Shown here: piece by piece, positions 2,957 through 33,279 of the stretch
Layout: each line of letters begins with the position of its first letter
Numbering within the stretch: position 1 is the first letter of the stretch
Virus record (IMG/VR): IMGVR_UViG_3300048580_000993
Coordinates: 1 to 36,032 of that record
Source of the DNA: a virus
Length of the DNA: 36,032 nt
Strand: one strand, 5' to 3'
Notes under the pieces: generated by a model
What the model saw: the letters and a program-made list of their open reading frames with translations, nothing else
Databases searched by the model: none
Told to the model about the DNA's origin: nothing
Translations under genes and position numbers: made by a program

Positions 2957-4171
2957 ATGAGTAAACTTTTCGAAAGTCATTGGAAAGCCGTTAAAACAGA
3001 ACTTTGCAAAGGTAAAGACCTTGAAACCAATATGGACGGCACAGCAAATCCAAATAAAAAGAAAATAATGGAAACATTATTAGACAATACACGTGCAGAT
3101 TTAATGCGTCGTAACTTGACAGAAACTGCAACAGCAGGTTCAACATCATCAGGTAACGTTGCTACATTAAATAAAGTAATTCTTCCAGTCATTCGTCGTG
3201 TTATGCCAACAGTTATCGCTAACGAAATTATCGGCGTACAACCAATGACAGGTCCAGTTGCACAAATTCACACCCTTCGTGTTCGTTACAGCGACAACGC
3301 TTCTGGCGTAACACCAGGTACTGAAGCATTATCTCCATTCCAAATCGCTCTTGGATATGCAGGTAACAACAGCACAACCCTTCCAGCAGCAGCACCAACA
3401 GCTACTCTTGAAGGTCGTCCAGGTAACCGTTTGAGCATCCAAATCTTGAAAGAAGTCGTTGAAGCTAAGACACGTAAATTAGCAGCACGTTGGACTTTTG
3501 AAGCAGCACAAGATGCACAAGCACAACAAGGTATCGATATCGAAGCAGAAATCATGGCAGCTCTTGCACAAGAAATCACTGCAGAAATCGACCAAGAAAT
3601 CTTGGCAAGCCTTATTCGTCTTCCAGGCACCCCAACAGCAGTATACAACCAAGCTAACGTTTCCGGTCAAGCCGTATTCGTTGGTGACGAACATGCTGCA
3701 TTGGCTGTTTTGATCAATCGTCAAGCAAACTTGATCGCTGCACGTACACGTCGTGGCGCAGGTAACTGGGCAGTTGTATCCCCAACAGCATTAACCATCC
3801 TTCAAAGTGCAACAACATCAGCATTCGCACGTACTACAGAAGGCGTTTTCGAAGCACCAACAAACACAAAGTTTGCAGGTACTTTGAACAATTCCATGCG
3901 TATTTACGTCAATCAATATGCTTCTGATGACACACCAGTATTGGTTGGTTACAAAGGTCAAGGCGAAATCGACGCAGCAGCTTATTATTGCCCATATGTG
4001 CCATTAACAAGCAGTGGTGTTGTTATCGACCCAGAAACATTCGAACCAGTAGTTAGCTTCATGACTCGTTATGGCTACCTCGAATTAACCAACACAAGCT
4101 CATCTTTGGGCAACAGTGCTGATTATCTCGGTTTGATTGGAATCGATACTTCACACTTGAAGTTTCTTTGA
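2957..4171 (+). CDS. 23: Major capsid protein, T4 gp23-like (HK97 fold)
   Basis: This protein forms the capsid hexamers. It has 404 residues, shorter than T4 gp23 (521). The N-terminal region is charged and removable: the motif NLTE followed by TATAGSTSSG gives a gp21-type cleavage after Glu56, in the place of T4 Glu65. Family-typical features are PVIRRVMPTVIANEIIGVQP around residues 74-93, the Ala/Glu-rich spine helix with KTRKLAARWTFEAAQD, and the closing DYLGLIGIDTSHLKF. Codons are the most GC-rich and optimised of the neighbourhood (many GCA, GGT, CGT), as expected of a highly expressed gene. It is the last gene of the head cassette and is followed by a strong terminator. AAAGGAG lies before the start. 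Confidence 0.93.
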   Translation: MSKLFESHWKAVKTELCKGKDLETNMDGTANPNKKKIMETLLDNTRADLMRRNLTETATAGSTSSGNVATLNKVILPVIRRVMPTVIANEIIGVQPMTGPVAQIHTLRVRYSDNASGVTPGTEALSPFQIALGYAGNNSTTLPAAAPTATLEGRPGNRLSIQILKEVVEAKTRKLAARWTFEAAQDAQAQQGIDIEAEIMAALAQEITAEIDQEILASLIRLPGTPTAVYNQANVSGQAVFVGDEHAALAVLINRQANLIAARTRRGAGNWAVVSPTALTILQSATTSAFARTTEGVFEAPTNTKFAGTLNNSMRIYVNQYASDDTPVLVGYKGQGEIDAAAYYCPYVPLTSSGVVIDPETFEPVVSFMTRYGYLELTNTSSSLGNSADYLGLIGIDTSHLKFL

Positions 4172-22542: not shown

Positions 22543-23082
22543 ATGACAACAAACCCAAAAATTGAAGAAATGCTTAAAACTATAATCGCCCATGAGGGAG
22601 GATATTGCAACGTTCCCGGTGACAAAGGTGGTGCCACAAATTTTGGTGTAACCTTGGCTGTATTGCGTGAATGCCGCAACGACCCATCATTGGATGCAGA
22701 TGACGTAAAGAATATGACTCTTGCAGAAGCCAAAGAAATCTACGCAGAAAAATATTACCATGACCCAAAAATTGATATGGCACCATTAGAACTTCAACCA
22801 CAACTTCTTGATATTGCGGTCAATTCAGGACCAGGTAAAGCCATTAAAATTCTACAGCAAGTTCTTGTAGATTTAGGTAAGAAAGTTGCAGTCGATGGTG
22901 GAATGGGTCCAGCAACTGCTAAAGCAGCCCAAGAAGCTTGTAATGAACACACATGGAAAGTAGTCAATAATAAAATTGCAGAGTCAAGATTGGCATTCTA
23001 TAATAGAATTGTTGAACGTGATCCTGTACAGGCAAAATTTTTGAAAGGATGGACTACAAGAGCCAATAGCTTTAAAGTTTAA
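22543..23082 (+). CDS. Endolysin, glycoside hydrolase family 108 muramidase
   Basis: This 179-residue peptidoglycan hydrolase is of the GH108 family. The N-terminal catalytic domain shows IIAHEGGYCNVPGDKGGATN with Glu18 as the catalytic acid, then FGVTLAVL. The C-terminal part (about 85-179) matches the peptidoglycan-binding domain usually paired with GH108 (LLDIAVNSGPGKAIKILQQ, VDGGMGPATAKAA). There is no signal peptide or N-terminal membrane helix, so release to the periplasm needs a holin. The length is typical. AGGAG lies before the ATG. It is the last gene after tail fibre and accessory gene, and its stop overlaps the convergent 23079 gene. Confidence 0.9.
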   Translation: MTTNPKIEEMLKTIIAHEGGYCNVPGDKGGATNFGVTLAVLRECRNDPSLDADDVKNMTLAEAKEIYAEKYYHDPKIDMAPLELQPQLLDIAVNSGPGKAIKILQQVLVDLGKKVAVDGGMGPATAKAAQEACNEHTWKVVNNKIAESRLAFYNRIVERDPVQAKFLKGWTTRANSFKV

Positions 23083-23327
23083 TATCCAAGCTTTAATCTT
23101 AGTAACATTGCGTCACTTTGAAGGGAAAAATAAAATTGTACAATATTGCTGTGGGGATTTTTGAACCAGTTCCAACGTTTACCTGGTTCCCCCAAAGCTT
23201 TTTTGGCTGATTGGAATAATTCTTTATAACCTGATTTTGTTGGACCATCGAAGTGGACTTCATACATGAACCTTTGTTTTGCAGTTTCGTGTATGATTTT
23301 ATATTTAGTTTTCGTTATCCTAATCAT
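23079..23327 (-). CDS. Small hypothetical protein of the minus-strand cluster
   Basis: The 82-residue protein ends in a strand-helix signature (IVQFYFSLQSDAMLLRLKLGY) comparable with several neighbours that end like xFxxxxDAxxFxLxW. The body reads like a small alpha/beta domain. Its function is unknown. GGAG lies before the ATG, which follows inside the end of the 23320 gene. It is the last gene of a run of overlapping minus-strand genes. Confidence 0.7.
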   Translation of the reverse strand: MIRITKTKYKIIHETAKQRFMYEVHFDGPTKSGYKELFQSAKKALGEPGKRWNWFKNPHSNIVQFYFSLQSDAMLLRLKLGY

Positions 23328-23547
23328 CTATTTTCTCCACCAAGTGCCCCCAAGTCAACTGAAATTTAATTGCATCTTCACTATTTCTAAATGATAATAT
23401 TGATGATGGTAGCGAATTGCTAATACGATTTCCTTGTGACCAGTTTTCATCTATAATATTTTTTCGTAACCAAGAATTAATTTGGTCACACACCTCACCA
23501 TTTATCTTACCACCAAATATCTCAAATGTCACAAGAAATTTATACAT
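23320..23547 (-). CDS. Small hypothetical protein with DAxxFxLxW-type C-terminus
   Basis: The 75-residue protein from ATG 23547 (MYKFLVTFEIFGG), which overlaps the upstream stop in ATGTATAA; the longer TTG start at 23574 has no support. It ends with ILSFRNSEDAIKFQLTWGH, the clearest example of the family signature in this cluster. It ends with TAG. The function is unknown. Confidence 0.7.
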   Translation of the reverse strand: MYKFLVTFEIFGGKINGEVCDQINSWLRKNIIDENWSQGNRISNSLPSSILSFRNSEDAIKFQLTWGHLVEKIDD

Positions 23548-23842
23548 TTGACAATGAAAATAATATGGCGTCAATTGAACTTGACATGCCTAAAAATAAA
23601 CAACGTTCAATTTTATCATCATCACCTCTGCGTTGTCCTATAAACGCTGCAATCAAACCATTTTTTATACTATATAATTTTTCCCAATTAAATAAATTGA
23701 AACAAGTATCTGAATCATAATTTTTTATAAAAATATATTTAAAATCTCTATAATCGCCCTTATCCCCAAGTTGTTCTATTATTGTATATTTTTTCATAAT
23801 TTCGTGGGAAGAGTTTGAAAAGTCTGATTGTCCTAAGCCCAT
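23540..23842 (-). CDS. Small hypothetical protein with DAILF-type C-terminus
   Basis: The ATG at 23842 (MGLGQSDFSN) has GAGG nine bases upstream and a GATAAATA motif 29 bases upstream, so it is preferred to the TTG at 23857. The product is 100 residues and ends CLFLGMSSSIDAILFSLSNV, matching the cluster signature. Its stop overlaps the next start. The function is unknown. Confidence 0.68.
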   Translation of the reverse strand: MGLGQSDFSNSSHEIMKKYTIIEQLGDKGDYRDFKYIFIKNYDSDTCFNLFNWEKLYSIKNGLIAAFIGQRRGDDDKIERCLFLGMSSSIDAILFSLSNV

Positions 23843-23869
23843 GTCAATAATCCTCAAAAAGGTGTATTA

Positions 23870-24349
23870 TTATTTATCAGAATCTGTTCGTTTGGATAAC
23901 TTTATTAAAAGTTGATAATTATTCCAAGCTTCTTTTACAGCTTTGTTTTCTTCGTGTAATTTCTTTTCCCATTCCATTTGTTTTATCCAATCAATGTGTT
24001 CTTTTAACACAGGGTAATTTTTAATATCTCCAACGATTTGATGGTTCGCTTCTGTTTTTACAAAAATGGCATCACATCTTCTACAAACGTGTAAATTATT
24101 AATAATCGCCCCACCATAATTCATTATAGATAACCCTGAATTATGGGCAATTGTTGTATTTGCCCAATTTGAATTGGATAATATTGTTCCTGTAATGGAT
24201 AGTGGTGAAATAGTAGCCATATTGGATAATGATATTTTTTGTGGATGGCTTGTTTTAAAATCTTTTTCTGTTATTCTTGGGATTGGATCGACCCTACAAT
24301 ATGGTTGGTGTCCTTTAAAAGCGCATATTAGTTTGTTTAATAATTTCAT
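23870..24349 (-). CDS. Zinc-ribbon-type hypothetical protein
   Basis: The 159-residue protein opens MKLLNKLICAFKGHQPYC and has a second Cys pair in HVCRRCDAIF (about 88-97). This layout is known from small phage proteins where a C-x-GH motif and a later CxxC bind one zinc. Between them lies a Ser/Asn/Ile-rich segment (about 35-85) that looks like an insertion. The C-terminus is a Lys/Glu/Trp-rich helix. Its ATG overlaps the upstream stop (ATGA). The role is unknown. Confidence 0.7.
   Translation of the reverse strand: MKLLNKLICAFKGHQPYCRVDPIPRITEKDFKTSHPQKISLSNMATISPLSITGTILSNSNWANTTIAHNSGLSIMNYGGAIINNLHVCRRCDAIFVKTEANHQIVGDIKNYPVLKEHIDWIKQMEWEKKLHEENKAVKEAWNNYQLLIKLSKRTDSDK
23871..23878 (-). 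promoter_or_regulatory. Putative late promoter (GATAAATA)
   Basis: On the minus strand GATAAATA overlaps the last codons of the 23870 gene and lies 29 bases before the ATG at 23842, the standard spacing. Confidence 0.5.
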
Positions 24350-24690
24350 TCCATAAGCCCCAATTGTTTCATTTGTTCTTTAAAGGCATAATTTGGATCA
24401 GCCTTTACATGTGTTAATTTAAATAGTATAACATCGATGTTGTTTGGAATCCAAATTATTATTGAATGGTGGTTTTCAATATCATGGCTTATTAATACTT
24501 CAGATAGATTTTTATGACACCATGAAATAATTTCGTCATAACGTTCATTTGATGTTGGGGAAAAACAATAAGCCTTCCCATTAAAAATATGTTTTTTGGA
24601 TGGTTTTGGATTTAAATAATTTAGTGAATCTAAGTCTTCACCTTTTTGTAAAGATAGTCTGTTATAGTTCCAAATATCTCTGTTAGTCAT
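24346..24690 (-). CDS. Small hypothetical protein with family C-terminus
   Basis: The 114-residue protein starts at the ATG at 24690 (MTNRDIWN); GAGG lies just before it and it overlaps the upstream stop. The second half reads as strand, helix, strand with HSIIIWIPNNIDVILFKLTH near the end, again the cluster signature. The function is unknown. Confidence 0.7.
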   Translation of the reverse strand: MTNRDIWNYNRLSLQKGEDLDSLNYLNPKPSKKHIFNGKAYCFSPTSNERYDEIISWCHKNLSEVLISHDIENHHSIIIWIPNNIDVILFKLTHVKADPNYAFKEQMKQLGLME

Positions 24691-25048
24691 CACAATCCTC
24701 TTGATATTTTAATACAAATAATAAACGATCTTCTTTATTTTCAAATAAAATACATTCTTCGCTGTGAATATAATAATTTATATTCTTGAAGTGGATTTTT
24801 AAAAATTCTGTGATTTTGTTTATGTTTTTTGATTTTGGGTTATATTCTGTTGTTGGTATCCAATTTAGATTAGCGCAAGCCCCAATACTAACATAAAGAT
24901 ATGGACGCCATTCATCCCTTTCCAATCGCTCTGATAACCATTCCCCAAATTCAGAAGCATTACAGACAAACCTTTTGTGTAAAAACTCTTGAAAATGGGC
25001 TGACTTGGTGTTTATATTATTTGGGTCAATAAAATCAATATCTCTCAT
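24683..25048 (-). CDS. Small hypothetical protein with family C-terminus
   Basis: The 121-residue protein starts MRDIDFIDPNN and ends CILFENKEDRLLFVLKYQED, matching the signature. A central part with LSERLERDEWRPYLYVSIG may be a helix-strand pair. AAGGAAGG lies before the ATG, and start and upstream stop share a base (TAATG). The function is unknown. Confidence 0.7.
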   Translation of the reverse strand: MRDIDFIDPNNINTKSAHFQEFLHKRFVCNASEFGEWLSERLERDEWRPYLYVSIGACANLNWIPTTEYNPKSKNINKITEFLKIHFKNINYYIHSEECILFENKEDRLLFVLKYQEDCDD

Positions 25049-25455
25049 TATGCCTTCCTTTGTAGAATTGGGGATAAAAAGTCAATTAAAACTTTGTCTT
25101 GTTCTGTTGATACAAATATAACATTATTTTTAAAATCTATATAAAAATAACCAACTGAAAATTCTTTAAAAAGCATATAAAATTTCAACCAATTTTTTTG
25201 GAATGTTTTGTTTTCTTTATCTAAGTTTATTATTTTTACATTGTTTCCTATATTAAATAATTTAAAAAATTTTTCTATTAATCTTATTTTATGTTTTTTG
25301 TGTAGATATACATTCTTTTTATTCCCAAGATAAAAATGGATTGATTTCTTCCAAACAATTTCCCTGCGACAAAATGGGTTAACCAGTTGTGTAATTATGA
25401 CTTGTTTAACTTCTTCATTAGATAATTTATTCCACCAAATATATTTTTCATCCAT
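25048..25455 (-). CDS. Small hypothetical protein with family-like C-terminus
   Basis: The ATG at 25455 (MDEKYIWWNKLSNEE) overlaps the Nudix stop as ATGGATGA and gives 135 residues; the frame extends to a TTG at 25482 without support. The protein is very Lys/Phe/Asn-rich, with NVIFVSTEQDKVLIDFL near the end, a looser form of the cluster signature. The function is unknown. Confidence 0.65.
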   Translation of the reverse strand: MDEKYIWWNKLSNEEVKQVIITQLVNPFCRREIVWKKSIHFYLGNKKNVYLHKKHKIRLIEKFFKLFNIGNNVKIINLDKENKTFQKNWLKFYMLFKEFSVGYFYIDFKNNVIFVSTEQDKVLIDFLSPILQRKA

Positions 25456-25999
25456 TGGTAAATTTAAAAACCTTGTTGACAAAAATGTTATAATTATTTG
25501 TTAATTTGGAAATTTTGTATGATAGGGAATTACGAAATGCAATTGCCTTGCAGATAAGTTCTTTGTGGTTGAAAGCCAAATCCATATCATCAATATCTCT
25601 CATGGTAACAAATTTAATCTCCATTAAATCATCACCAGCTTTCATTGTTGAAATTTGTTTATTGGATAATTCAACTAAAAATAGGTTGTTAATAATGTGC
25701 GCCCTACTATCAGTATTAGGGTTTGAGCTTACACCAAACAACGTTAATTGATCTTTATTAACAACAATATTAGTTTCTTCCATAATTTCTCTAACAGCAG
25801 TATCTTCTACACATTCGCCTTTTTTTACAATAACTCCATCCTCCATAACTTGTGCATCCACAAATCCACCGGGGACAGACCAAAATCCAGCGAAAGCATC
25901 TGCGTTAATGTCTCGCTTGCCAAGTAAAATCTTATCGTTGTAGAACATGAACATTGTGGTTGTCCCAGACACCATTGGGAAACGATAGGTATAGGTCAT
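25448..25999 (-). CDS. Nudix hydrolase
   Basis: The 183-residue protein hydrolyses a nucleoside diphosphate linked to another group, by family. The Nudix box is present, but with an insertion of about ten residues: GGFVD, then an extra stretch, then GECVEDTAVREIMEETNIV, which keeps the catalytic REx2EE core. The N-terminal strand (TTTMFMFYNDKILLGKR) and FWSVPGG are typical. The substrate is unknown; phage Nudix enzymes may clean up dNTP pools, ADP-ribose or NAD-like compounds, or mRNA caps. AAAGGA lies before the ATG and a sigma-70-like promoter precedes it, so it is likely expressed early. Confidence 0.88.
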   Translation of the reverse strand: MTYTYRFPMVSGTTTMFMFYNDKILLGKRDINADAFAGFWSVPGGFVDAQVMEDGVIVKKGECVEDTAVREIMEETNIVVNKDQLTLFGVSSNPNTDSRAHIINNLFLVELSNKQISTMKAGDDLMEIKFVTMRDIDDMDLAFNHKELICKAIAFRNSLSYKISKLTNNYNIFVNKVFKFTNG

Positions 26000-26028
26000 T
26001 TTTCAATCCTTTCATACATTGATTAATC

Positions 26029-26057
26029 ATACTATCACCATTTTTAGGGCTTGTCAA
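26029..26057 (-). promoter_or_regulatory. Sigma-70-like early promoter for the Nudix operon
   Basis: Minus-strand TTGACA (26057-26052), 17 bases, TAGTAT (26034-26029) lies about 30 bases before the Nudix ATG. It has an exact -35 box and optimal spacing. Confidence 0.78.
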
Positions 26058-26554
26058 GAAATTAACAATCCATTTTCTGGCAACGACATTTTAACGAACA
26101 TCAAATCTTTTTTGGTGATATTATCAAAAAAGAAACATAGATTGCAGTCATCATCCAAATATAGGTTTTTTATCATAGTTTCTTTTGAATGTTTTTTGAA
26201 AAAATTATTGCAAGTCATCTTCTTAATCCAATAATATTCTTGTTTAAAAAGTTCTTCTTGTTCAGGTTCAATATAATATTCCCCCAAATGTTTAAAATGT
26301 TTATAATTTTTCACCCAATGCCCTTTTGATGAAAGTTTAATAAAATACAATTCTTTATGAATAGTGTATTGATATTTTTGTTGATTTTGTTCAAACCACC
26401 CCAACAAAGAATCGTCAATAATTTTGGCGAAAGTGTGGTGTTTTAATCTTTGATTTATTTTTCCGTGGAAGGTGTAGAATTCAAAGTTTGTGGGGAAATT
26501 AGTTTCCAGCCAAGTGTCAATATAATTCTCGAAATTTGTGATCCAAAATGCCAT
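26054..26554 (-). CDS. Hypothetical protein with family-like C-terminus
   Basis: The 166-residue protein opens MAFWITNFENYIDTWLETNF and ends CNLCFFFDNITKKDLMFVKMSLPENG, another loose example of the strand-DxxxF-helix ending. The middle is Lys/Tyr/Phe-rich. AGAGGA lies before the ATG. Its 3' end covers the -35 region of the Nudix promoter. The function is unknown. Confidence 0.7.
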   Translation of the reverse strand: MAFWITNFENYIDTWLETNFPTNFEFYTFHGKINQRLKHHTFAKIIDDSLLGWFEQNQQKYQYTIHKELYFIKLSSKGHWVKNYKHFKHLGEYYIEPEQEELFKQEYYWIKKMTCNNFFKKHSKETMIKNLYLDDDCNLCFFFDNITKKDLMFVKMSLPENGLLIS

Positions 26555-27932: not shown

Positions 27933-29207
27933 TTATGCATCTGTCCCAGAATTTTCTTGTTTATTGTCGTGTATAAAAATTGGTTCTTCTTTATCTGTTA
28001 TGACTTTTTCGGTGATGATGATTTTTGAAACCCCATCATTCTTCAAGTCTGGTAGTCTATATTGTAATTTAGTCAACGTTTTTTCGATAATGGCTCGAAG
28101 ACCACGGGCACCTGTTAAAGCCTTGTCAGCGACCTTCGCAATGGCTAATAGGGCATCATTAACGAACTCAAGCTCCACCCCATCCAATTTGAACAATGCT
28201 TGGAATTGTCTAATAACAGCGTTCTTTGGTTCTGTTAAAATTTGTACCAATTGGTCTTCTGTTAATTCATCCAAAACTGCGATAACTGGAAAACGCCCTA
28301 CAAATTCTGGAATCATACCAAAAGAAATAAAATCTTCTGGTTCGAGCATTTCAAGCATTTTTCCAGAATGTTTTTTTCTATCTTTATCTTCTACAACACT
28401 TTTAATAGATGCCCCAAAACCTATTGAAGATTTTTCATTGGTACGATTTTCCACATATTTTTCAATACCAACGAATGCCCCTGCAGCGAAGAAAAGAATA
28501 TTTTTGGTATCAATGACAATCATTTCTTGTGATGGATTTTTTCTTCCACCATTTGGGGGGACTCGAATTTCAGCCCCTTCAATAATCTTCAAAAGAGCCT
28601 GTTGCACACCTTCACCTGAAACGTCCCTTGTAATGGAAACATTATCGCCTTTTTTAGCTTTTTTATCAATTTCGTCAATGAAGATAATTCCCTTTTGTGC
28701 TTTTTCCACATCATAATCTGCAACTTGGAGCAATCTTGTAAGAATAGATTCCACATCATCACCAACATACCCAGATTCAGTCAACGAAGAAGCTCCGCAA
28801 ATGGTGAAAGGAATATCCAATTTTCTTGCGATTGTTTGGGCTAATAAAGTTTTGCCTGTGCCTGATGAACCACAAACGAAGATGTTGGACTTGCTCATTT
28901 CCACCCCATCAATTTCAGGGTTTTGGATTCGTTTGTAATGGTTATAAACTGCCACAGCGATAGTTTCTTTGGCTGTCCCTTGTCCAATAACATATTGGTC
29001 CATAAATTCTTTTAATTCTCTTGGGGTTGGGATTCTGTTTGGGTCACGAGGTTCATCACTTCCACCAGTATTTTTAAAGATGATATCATAACATAACGCA
29101 ACACATTCATTACAAATCCAAACATCTGGACCAGCAATGATTTTTTTAACTTCAGTTTGGCGCTTCCCACAAAAGGAACATTCGCATAAATGTTTTTCTT
29201 CGCTCAT
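27933..29207 (-). CDS. clpX: ClpX ATP-dependent unfoldase
   Basis: The 424-residue AAA+ unfoldase matches bacterial ClpX (424 in E. coli). The zinc-binding domain has Cys10, Cys13, Cys32 and Cys35. The AAA+ module has Walker A GSSGTGKT (113-120), pore loop GYVGDD (146-151), Walker B FIDEID (176-181), EFVGRFPV with the arginine finger, and sensor-II GARGLRAIIE. The IGF loop that docks ClpX on ClpP is kept (IGFG, 262-265), so it may work with host ClpP. The RKH pore loop of E. coli is RKN here (222-224), which may change substrate choice. AAGGTGA lies before the ATG. It lies between a small gene and IF-3 in one operon. Confidence 0.94.
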   Translation of the reverse strand: MSEEKHLCECSFCGKRQTEVKKIIAGPDVWICNECVALCYDIIFKNTGGSDEPRDPNRIPTPRELKEFMDQYVIGQGTAKETIAVAVYNHYKRIQNPEIDGVEMSKSNIFVCGSSGTGKTLLAQTIARKLDIPFTICGASSLTESGYVGDDVESILTRLLQVADYDVEKAQKGIIFIDEIDKKAKKGDNVSITRDVSGEGVQQALLKIIEGAEIRVPPNGGRKNPSQEMIVIDTKNILFFAAGAFVGIEKYVENRTNEKSSIGFGASIKSVVEDKDRKKHSGKMLEMLEPEDFISFGMIPEFVGRFPVIAVLDELTEDQLVQILTEPKNAVIRQFQALFKLDGVELEFVNDALLAIAKVADKALTGARGLRAIIEKTLTKLQYRLPDLKNDGVSKIIITEKVITDKEEPIFIHDNKQENSGTDA

Positions 29208-32991: not shown

Positions 32992-33279
32992 TTATAGGTT
33001 CCAAGTCAACTTAAAATAAAATGCTTGGGGTTTTGTGAGGTATAATCTCATTAGAGTGGCATCATTGTTGGCGTTTCTGTGTGGGGAAATGTATTTTATA
33101 TATTCGTCTGTTGTATTTTCCCATAACGGATTTAGAATATGGAAACACTTATGGGTTTCCAACCAACTGATAAAACCAGAAAATGTTGTTTGGTTATTAT
33201 TAAAAAACGATATTTTTATGGGTATATCATAATCACCCATTTCCATATTTTTCATACGTTTGTAATTTGTCACTACCAT
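32992..33279 (-). CDS. Small hypothetical protein with family C-terminus
   Basis: The 95-residue protein ends MRLYLTKPQAFYFKLTWNL, the same FxLxW-type ending as the 23-26 kb cluster. AGGAGG lies seven bases before the ATG but inside a hairpin with the end of the upstream gene, which suggests coupled translation. The function is unknown. Confidence 0.68.
   Translation of the reverse strand: MVVTNYKRMKNMEMGDYDIPIKISFFNNNQTTFSGFISWLETHKCFHILNPLWENTTDEYIKYISPHRNANNDATLMRLYLTKPQAFYFKLTWNL

What the first reader, a model, noticed from the sequence alone, without database searches (positions are those of the whole stretch)
23079..26554. A family of small proteins sharing a strand-DA-xxF-x-L-x-W ending
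Products of the genes at 23320, 23540, 24346, 24683 and 32992 end with a hydrophobic strand, a polar turn, then D(A/V/R)xxxF or AFYF and a final L/K-x-hydrophobic pair, such as SEDAIKFQLTWG, SIDAILFSLSNV and QAFYFKLTW. Those at 23079, 25048 and 26054 show looser forms. All are on the minus strand and most overlap each other. The pattern suggests a paralogous family expanded by duplication, with variable N-terminal parts joined to a common ending.
Basis: seen in the sequence. Interest (0 to 1): 0.6.

Follow-up and report, generated by a model that had tools for sequence, protein, structure and literature searches.

The report
Hyper-duplicated small protein family in jumbo phages
The shared ending is real: it is part of an undescribed small protein domain found in dozens of copies per genome in some giant phages, and in some relatives it is fused to a copied piece of the phage's own shell protein that bacterial defence systems are known to sense.

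Summary
The ending is real and is not chance. A profile built only from external phage proteins, with the window left out, ranks 23320, 23079, 24346, 24683 and 32992 as the top five of all window ORFs. Four are significant: 16-35 bits, against a best of 9.7 for 3,960 shuffles. 32992 is borderline; 23540, 25048 and 26054 are not supported. The common part is a ~70-residue domain, not only an ending: strand, helix with a 95% conserved W, two strands, then helix A-x-x-F-K-L-x-W. AlphaFold2 gives a ferredoxin-like fold (pLDDT 82.5 and 87.3). Pfam and PHROGs have no model of it. It is under purifying selection (median dN/dS 0.15, 81 pairs) and hugely expanded in jumbo phages related to the window's: up to 77 copies in one 417-kb contig, 42-51 in Sinorhizobium phage Phosso. 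Unexpectedly, eight relatives join this domain to one segment of the phage's own gp23-like major capsid protein, in both orders. Where testable, that segment evolves more slowly than the domain. It lies in the first quarter of gp23, the part that holds the Gol peptide. Function is unproven. I favour a protein-binding scaffold for host takeover or counter-defence; some members look like capsid decoys.

The parts
23320..23574 (-). Best family member in the window; helix signature DAIKFQLTW at about 23350-23376
   Evidence: Profile 28-35 bits; AF2 pLDDT 82.5, strands and helices E11-16 H26-39 E45-51 E56-62 H65-75. No Shine-Dalgarno seen at the TTG start.
24346..24693 (-). Family member (EIISWCHKN ... 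IDVILFKLT); likely start ATG 24690
   Evidence: 3.6e-5, rising to 30.6 bits; AGGA upstream
24683..25048 (-). Family member (DRLLFVLKY), with a weak partial first domain at residues 13-48
   Evidence: 5.8e-4, rising to 27.6 bits; two stretches
23079..23327 (-). Divergent family member (FYFSLQSDAMLLRLKLG)
   Evidence: 2e-5; 16.4 bits; GGAG upstream of the ATG
32992..33279 (-). Probable member away from the cluster (FISWLE ... AFYFKLTW)
   Evidence: Profile E 0.019-0.13; phmmer E 0.0028
23540..23857 (-). Unproven: ending resembles the family (DAILFSLSN) but the profile does not support it; likely start ATG 23842
   Evidence: E 3.8; phmmer 0.069; AGGA before ATG 23842
25048..25482 (-).
26054..26554 (-).
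3161..3289 (+). Segment of this phage's own major capsid gene (MCP residues 69-111) whose relatives occur fused to the family domain in related phages; no such fusion is in the window
   Evidence: window check

Best explanation
These genes encode a phage-specific family of small one-domain proteins with a ferredoxin-like beta-alpha-beta-beta-alpha fold, multiplied by duplication in a clade of jumbo phages. Shown: the family, its purifying selection, its copy numbers and its absence from the libraries. Predicted: the fold. Inferred: the proteins act by binding other proteins. The second helix (A-M-L-F-K-L-x-W) is hydrophobic almost all round, which suits a surface packed on both sides, so I take it as a common docking or pairing face while the rest of the domain diversifies to hit many host or defence targets. 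In some relatives the domain carries a copied segment of the major capsid protein, which would let it occupy factors that recognise nascent capsid protein (EF-Tu or chaperones, or capsid-sensing defences of the Lit, CmdTAC or CapRel kind).
For: External profile finds the window members. 544 members in 120 phage DNA stretches. 25-77 copies in contigs above 350 kb, 42-51 in Phosso, 3 in PA5oct, 6 in Atu_ph07. dN/dS median 0.147, none above 1 in 81 pairs. Fold: two AF2 models. Signature frequencies W 95%, F 94%, K 69%, L 95%. MCP segment fused after the domain in five orthologs and before it in three other proteins. In the five orthologs dN is lower in the MCP part (0.21-0.43) than in the domain part (0.49-1.13). 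Capsid proteins are known defence triggers (PMC9712102, PMC11618068, PMC3014915).
Against: No partner, expression or phenotype data. No MCP segment in the window's own members. Some high-copy contigs with a full MCP (67 and 50 copies) show no second MCP segment. Two AF2 models only, with no coordinates to test burial. The fold is common and matches nothing specifically.
Confidence: 0.42

Rival explanations
1. RNA-binding proteins: the beta-alpha-beta-beta-alpha order and the strand-D-A-helix resemble an RRM, so the family could bind phage or host transcripts through the sheet.
For: Fold order; RRM chains among middling structural matches, Z 6-7.
Against: No Pfam RRM match at E up to 1. Structural Z is within the background range. 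The strand's conserved F sits at the spacing of RRM core residues, and the RNA-stacking positions are not conserved aromatics (inference columns).
Confidence: 0.15
2. Capsid-assembly helpers or internal head proteins: members interact with the phage's own capsid or scaffold.
For: MCP segments in relatives, one protease segment.
Against: Only a small minority carry them; none of the three PA5oct members is flagged as detected by mass spectrometry; members sit among small non-structural genes.
Confidence: 0.12
3. Adaptors for the phage-encoded Clp proteases: a common docking helix plus variable substrate-binding parts.
For: ClpX in the window (27933-29207); PA5oct members lie just after clpP; Atu_ph07 encodes seven Clp-family proteins (PMC6102473).
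Against: CBB and RaK2, of the same MCP clade, lack the family; proximity to clp genes was not tested across genomes.
Confidence: 0.08
4. Capsid segments are passive by-products of illegitimate recombination with the capsid gene, with no function of their own.
For: Short and rare; the segment also occurs with unrelated partners (Phosso, G005, G008).
Against: The same ~43-residue segment recurs, in both orders, and is more constrained than the attached domain in five orthologs.
Confidence: 0.15

Closest known systems
Ferredoxin-like superfold (ACT domains, RRM, designed ferredoxins)
   Same: Order and packing of strands and helices; Z up to 7.5
   Different: No Foldseek match at E <= 0.001; no Pfam, PHROG or sequence link; Z within the range the tool calls common
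Paralogous expansions in jumbo phages, e.g. ~35 zinc-ribbon copies in Bacillus phage G (PMC7824862)
   Same: One small domain multiplied in one giant genome
   Different: Unrelated domain; more copies here (up to 77); spread over many phages
Gol peptide of T4 gp23 (activates Lit through EF-Tu; PMC3014915)
   Same: The copied capsid segment maps to gp23 residues ~89-131 of T4-type phage RB32, in the first quarter of gp23 that holds the 29-residue Gol
   Different: Here it sits in a separate small protein; exact Gol boundaries were not checked in a primary paper; no EF-Tu binding shown
Uncharacterized proteins of Agrobacterium phage Atu_ph07, Sinorhizobium phage Phosso and Pseudomonas phage PA5oct
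   Same: Members of the family
   Different: Annotated only as hypothetical; never grouped as a family in what I could search

Membership tests
The new A-x-x-F-K-L-x-W domain family (window members) | Significant match to a profile built without the window | tested here: met
   23320, 23079, 24346, 24683; 32992 borderline; 23540, 25048, 26054 not met
The new A-x-x-F-K-L-x-W domain family (window members) | Predicted beta-alpha-beta-beta-alpha fold ending in the signature helix | tested here: met
   23320 only; relative L117
RRM RNA-binding domain | Match to the RRM profiles | tested here: not met
   No RRM hit among Pfam families at E up to 1
RRM RNA-binding domain | RNA binding | not testable with these tools
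   Needs binding assays
Any Pfam or PHROG family | Significant profile match | tested here: not met
   Best PHROG E 0.0074, best Pfam E 0.022
Gol-like capsid mimic | Segment homologous to gp23 ~89-131 in a separate small protein | tested here: met
   In relatives: ten contigs plus Phosso; in the window's own small proteins not met
Gol-like capsid mimic | Binds EF-Tu or a capsid sensor | not testable with these tools
   Needs pull-down
Virion protein | Found in particles by mass spectrometry | tested here: inconclusive
   PA5oct EST35_0247, 0274 and 0275 carry no ESI-MS/MS flag; small proteins are easily missed

The most novel reading that the evidence does not exclude
Some giant phages encode small two-part proteins that display a copy of the conserved Gol-region segment of their own major capsid protein on this domain. 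They would be decoys that bind the host factor or defence sensor that waits for nascent capsid protein, so that infection is not detected or translation is not shut down; the rest of the hyper-expanded family would be an arsenal of similar binders for other targets.
Probability: 0.25. Interest if true: 0.9.

Novelty: new variant of a known kind. Interest (0 to 1): 0.68.

Why it matters
An undescribed domain makes up roughly 6-10% of the genes of some giant phages and has no entry in the protein libraries, so it is a sizeable piece of phage dark matter that one profile now organises. Its recurrent fusion to the capsid segment gives a concrete, testable link to capsid-sensing immunity, where escape by mutating the essential capsid gene is hard.

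Tried and rejected
tblastn of two window members against named phages and a back-translation scan found nothing: the proteins are too divergent. Pfam and PHROGs gave nothing. PDB and viral fold searches gave no match at E <= 0.001. The idea that members generally carry pieces of any phage protein was tested in three genomes and rejected; MCP stands out, together with longer proteins that share the ending itself. Weaker MCP similarities at other positions (194-224, 319-358) exceed shuffles in number (13 against a mean of 1.35) but are mostly not significant singly. One query was by mistake a fusion of a window fragment and a relative; nothing rests on it. No literature mention of the motif.

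Full report
OBSERVATION. The window is a whole 36-kb virus record, a fragment. Its gp23-like major capsid protein (MCP, 2957-4171) is 82% identical to that of Sinorhizobium phage Phosso and 60-69% to those of Atu_ph07, PA5oct and RaK2, all jumbo phages; SCTP-2 is at 59%.

IS THE ENDING MORE THAN CHANCE? In the far larger bacterial genome collection it gave 20 stretches, of which three are real members, all in Alphaproteobacteria. In the viral stretches the motif lies in ORFs mostly of 60-130 residues, most often one to three residues before the stop. A profile from 100 of these, with no window sequence, put 23320, 23079, 24346, 24683 and 32992 first among the window's ORFs. Iterated, it finds 544 members in the same 120 stretches. 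With the final profile four window ORFs score 16.4-34.6 bits; 3,960 shuffled ORFs reach at most 9.7. 32992 is borderline, and 23540, 25048 and 26054 are not supported. One caution: an antisense ORF at 2290-2436 scores 8.8 bits, above 32992 in that last table.

WHAT IT IS. The conserved unit is about 70 residues: a strand, a helix with Trp (95%), a second strand that usually starts with an aromatic, a third strand with Phe (85%), and a helix A(80%)-M-L-F(94%)-K(69%)-L(95%)-x-W (the W is invariant where aligned, but the alignment is ragged there). AlphaFold2 gives that order for window 23320 (pLDDT 82.5, pTM 0.67) and for relative L117 (87.3, 0.75). PDB matches are the ferredoxin-like superfold at Z up to 7.5, a level the tool calls common. 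Viral matches are uncharacterized proteins of Atu_ph07 and uncultured phages. Pfam and PHROGs have no model. Close pairs have median dN/dS 0.147, none above 1, so the genes are real and constrained.

DISTRIBUTION. Counts at E <= 0.001: 77 in a 417-kb contig, 67, 64, 58 and 50 in four others, 42 in Phosso, 5 in Atu_ph07. At E <= 0.01: 51 in Phosso, 6 in Atu_ph07, 3 in PA5oct, none in RaK2, CBB, Vibrio 2.275.O or SCTP-2. Ten other named phages, including T4, phiKZ and phage G, have none. Copies often lie in tandem runs (e.g. Phosso 3-14, 95-100, 113-117 and 348-349 kb), as in the window.

CAPSID SEGMENTS. Looking for fusions, I found members that carry pieces of the phage's own MCP. Against controls, 13 of 526 members reach 23 bits with MCP, against 1.35 on average and 4 at most for 40 shuffles. 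The Phosso MCP alone gives 9, against at most 4 for 52 other Phosso proteins of similar length. One segment is beyond doubt: MCP residues about 69-111. A second, short copy of it occurs in 10 of 21 contigs examined, plus Phosso. In five contigs (G001, G004, G007, G009, G011) it follows the domain in orthologous proteins; in three (G002, G017, G018) it precedes the domain; in G005, G008 and Phosso it sits in a small protein without a detectable domain. Two opposite orders mean at least two joinings (inference). In the five orthologs nonsynonymous divergence is lower in the segment (0.21-0.43) than in the domain part (0.49-1.13). Recurrence in separate records argues against assembly artefact. 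Among 2,462 named phage records with this segment there are only 15 extra places, and in the 60 best rows Phosso alone has two. The window's own small proteins have none.

MEANING. The segment maps to residues about 89-131 of gp23 of the T4-type phage RB32. A review places the 29-residue Gol peptide in the first quarter of gp23, in its most conserved region, and says that it binds EF-Tu and thereby activates the Lit protease (PMC3014915). I did not verify Gol's exact residues in a primary source. CmdTAC also senses T4 gp23 (PMC11618068), and CapRel senses another phage's capsid protein (PMC9712102). A small protein that displays this segment could therefore act as a decoy, or as a regulator of capsid folding. 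Neither is shown.

MECHANISM. Shown: family, selection, expansion, fusions. Predicted: fold. Inferred: protein-protein binding. The last helix has Ala, Met, Leu, Phe, Leu and Trp on nearly all sides, which suggests that it is covered both by the sheet and by a partner or a second copy. A common docking face with diversifying remainder suits an arsenal against many host targets. RNA binding, Clp adaptors and capsid assembly remain open at lower odds.

VERDICT.

Noticed in passing
L224:774-1376, L226:685-1206, L225:718-1197, L190:2421-2897, L227:1047-1493: Orthologous small proteins with the family domain followed by MCP residues ~69-111; the capsid part is the more conserved part.
   Followed up: partly
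L003:3162-3632, L231:646-1089, L229:1007-1453: The same MCP segment placed before the domain instead of after it.
   Followed up: partly
L118:1747-2289: Family member preceded by a 17-18-residue piece of the gp21-like prohead protease (VKLGVSSRGSGKVNDSG, 82% identical over 17 to the protease of contig G004).
   Followed up: no
L053, L071, L083, L102, L105, L023, L080, L044, L003:6111-6545, L004:1250-1678: Members whose N-terminal part resembles MCP 194-224 (EIDxEIL helix); similarities are weak singly but recur.
   Followed up: partly
L094:2578-2982: A similar EID-type segment appears inserted inside the domain, between its second and third strands.
   Followed up: no
window 23870-24349; L167:2175-2855 and L167:3329-3844 (Phosso): A possible second shared ending of small proteins (NxxVKEAWNNYQLLIKL type), also on the Phosso protein with the MCP segment; a regular-expression count found only three examples in the held data.
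   Followed up: partly
L136:783-2484 (Allosphingosinicella): A bacterial chromosomal member next to a GNAT-like gene, flanked by a Sir2-like gene and a partial second copy of its start.
   Followed up: no
Phosso L178:4675-5685 (336 aa); G004 L201:1432-3036 (534 aa): Longer proteins that carry the same ending (NDALMFRLSY, SSALMFKLSY).
   Followed up: no
window 24683-25048: Weak second copy of the first half of the domain at residues 13-48, perhaps an internal duplication.
   Followed up: no
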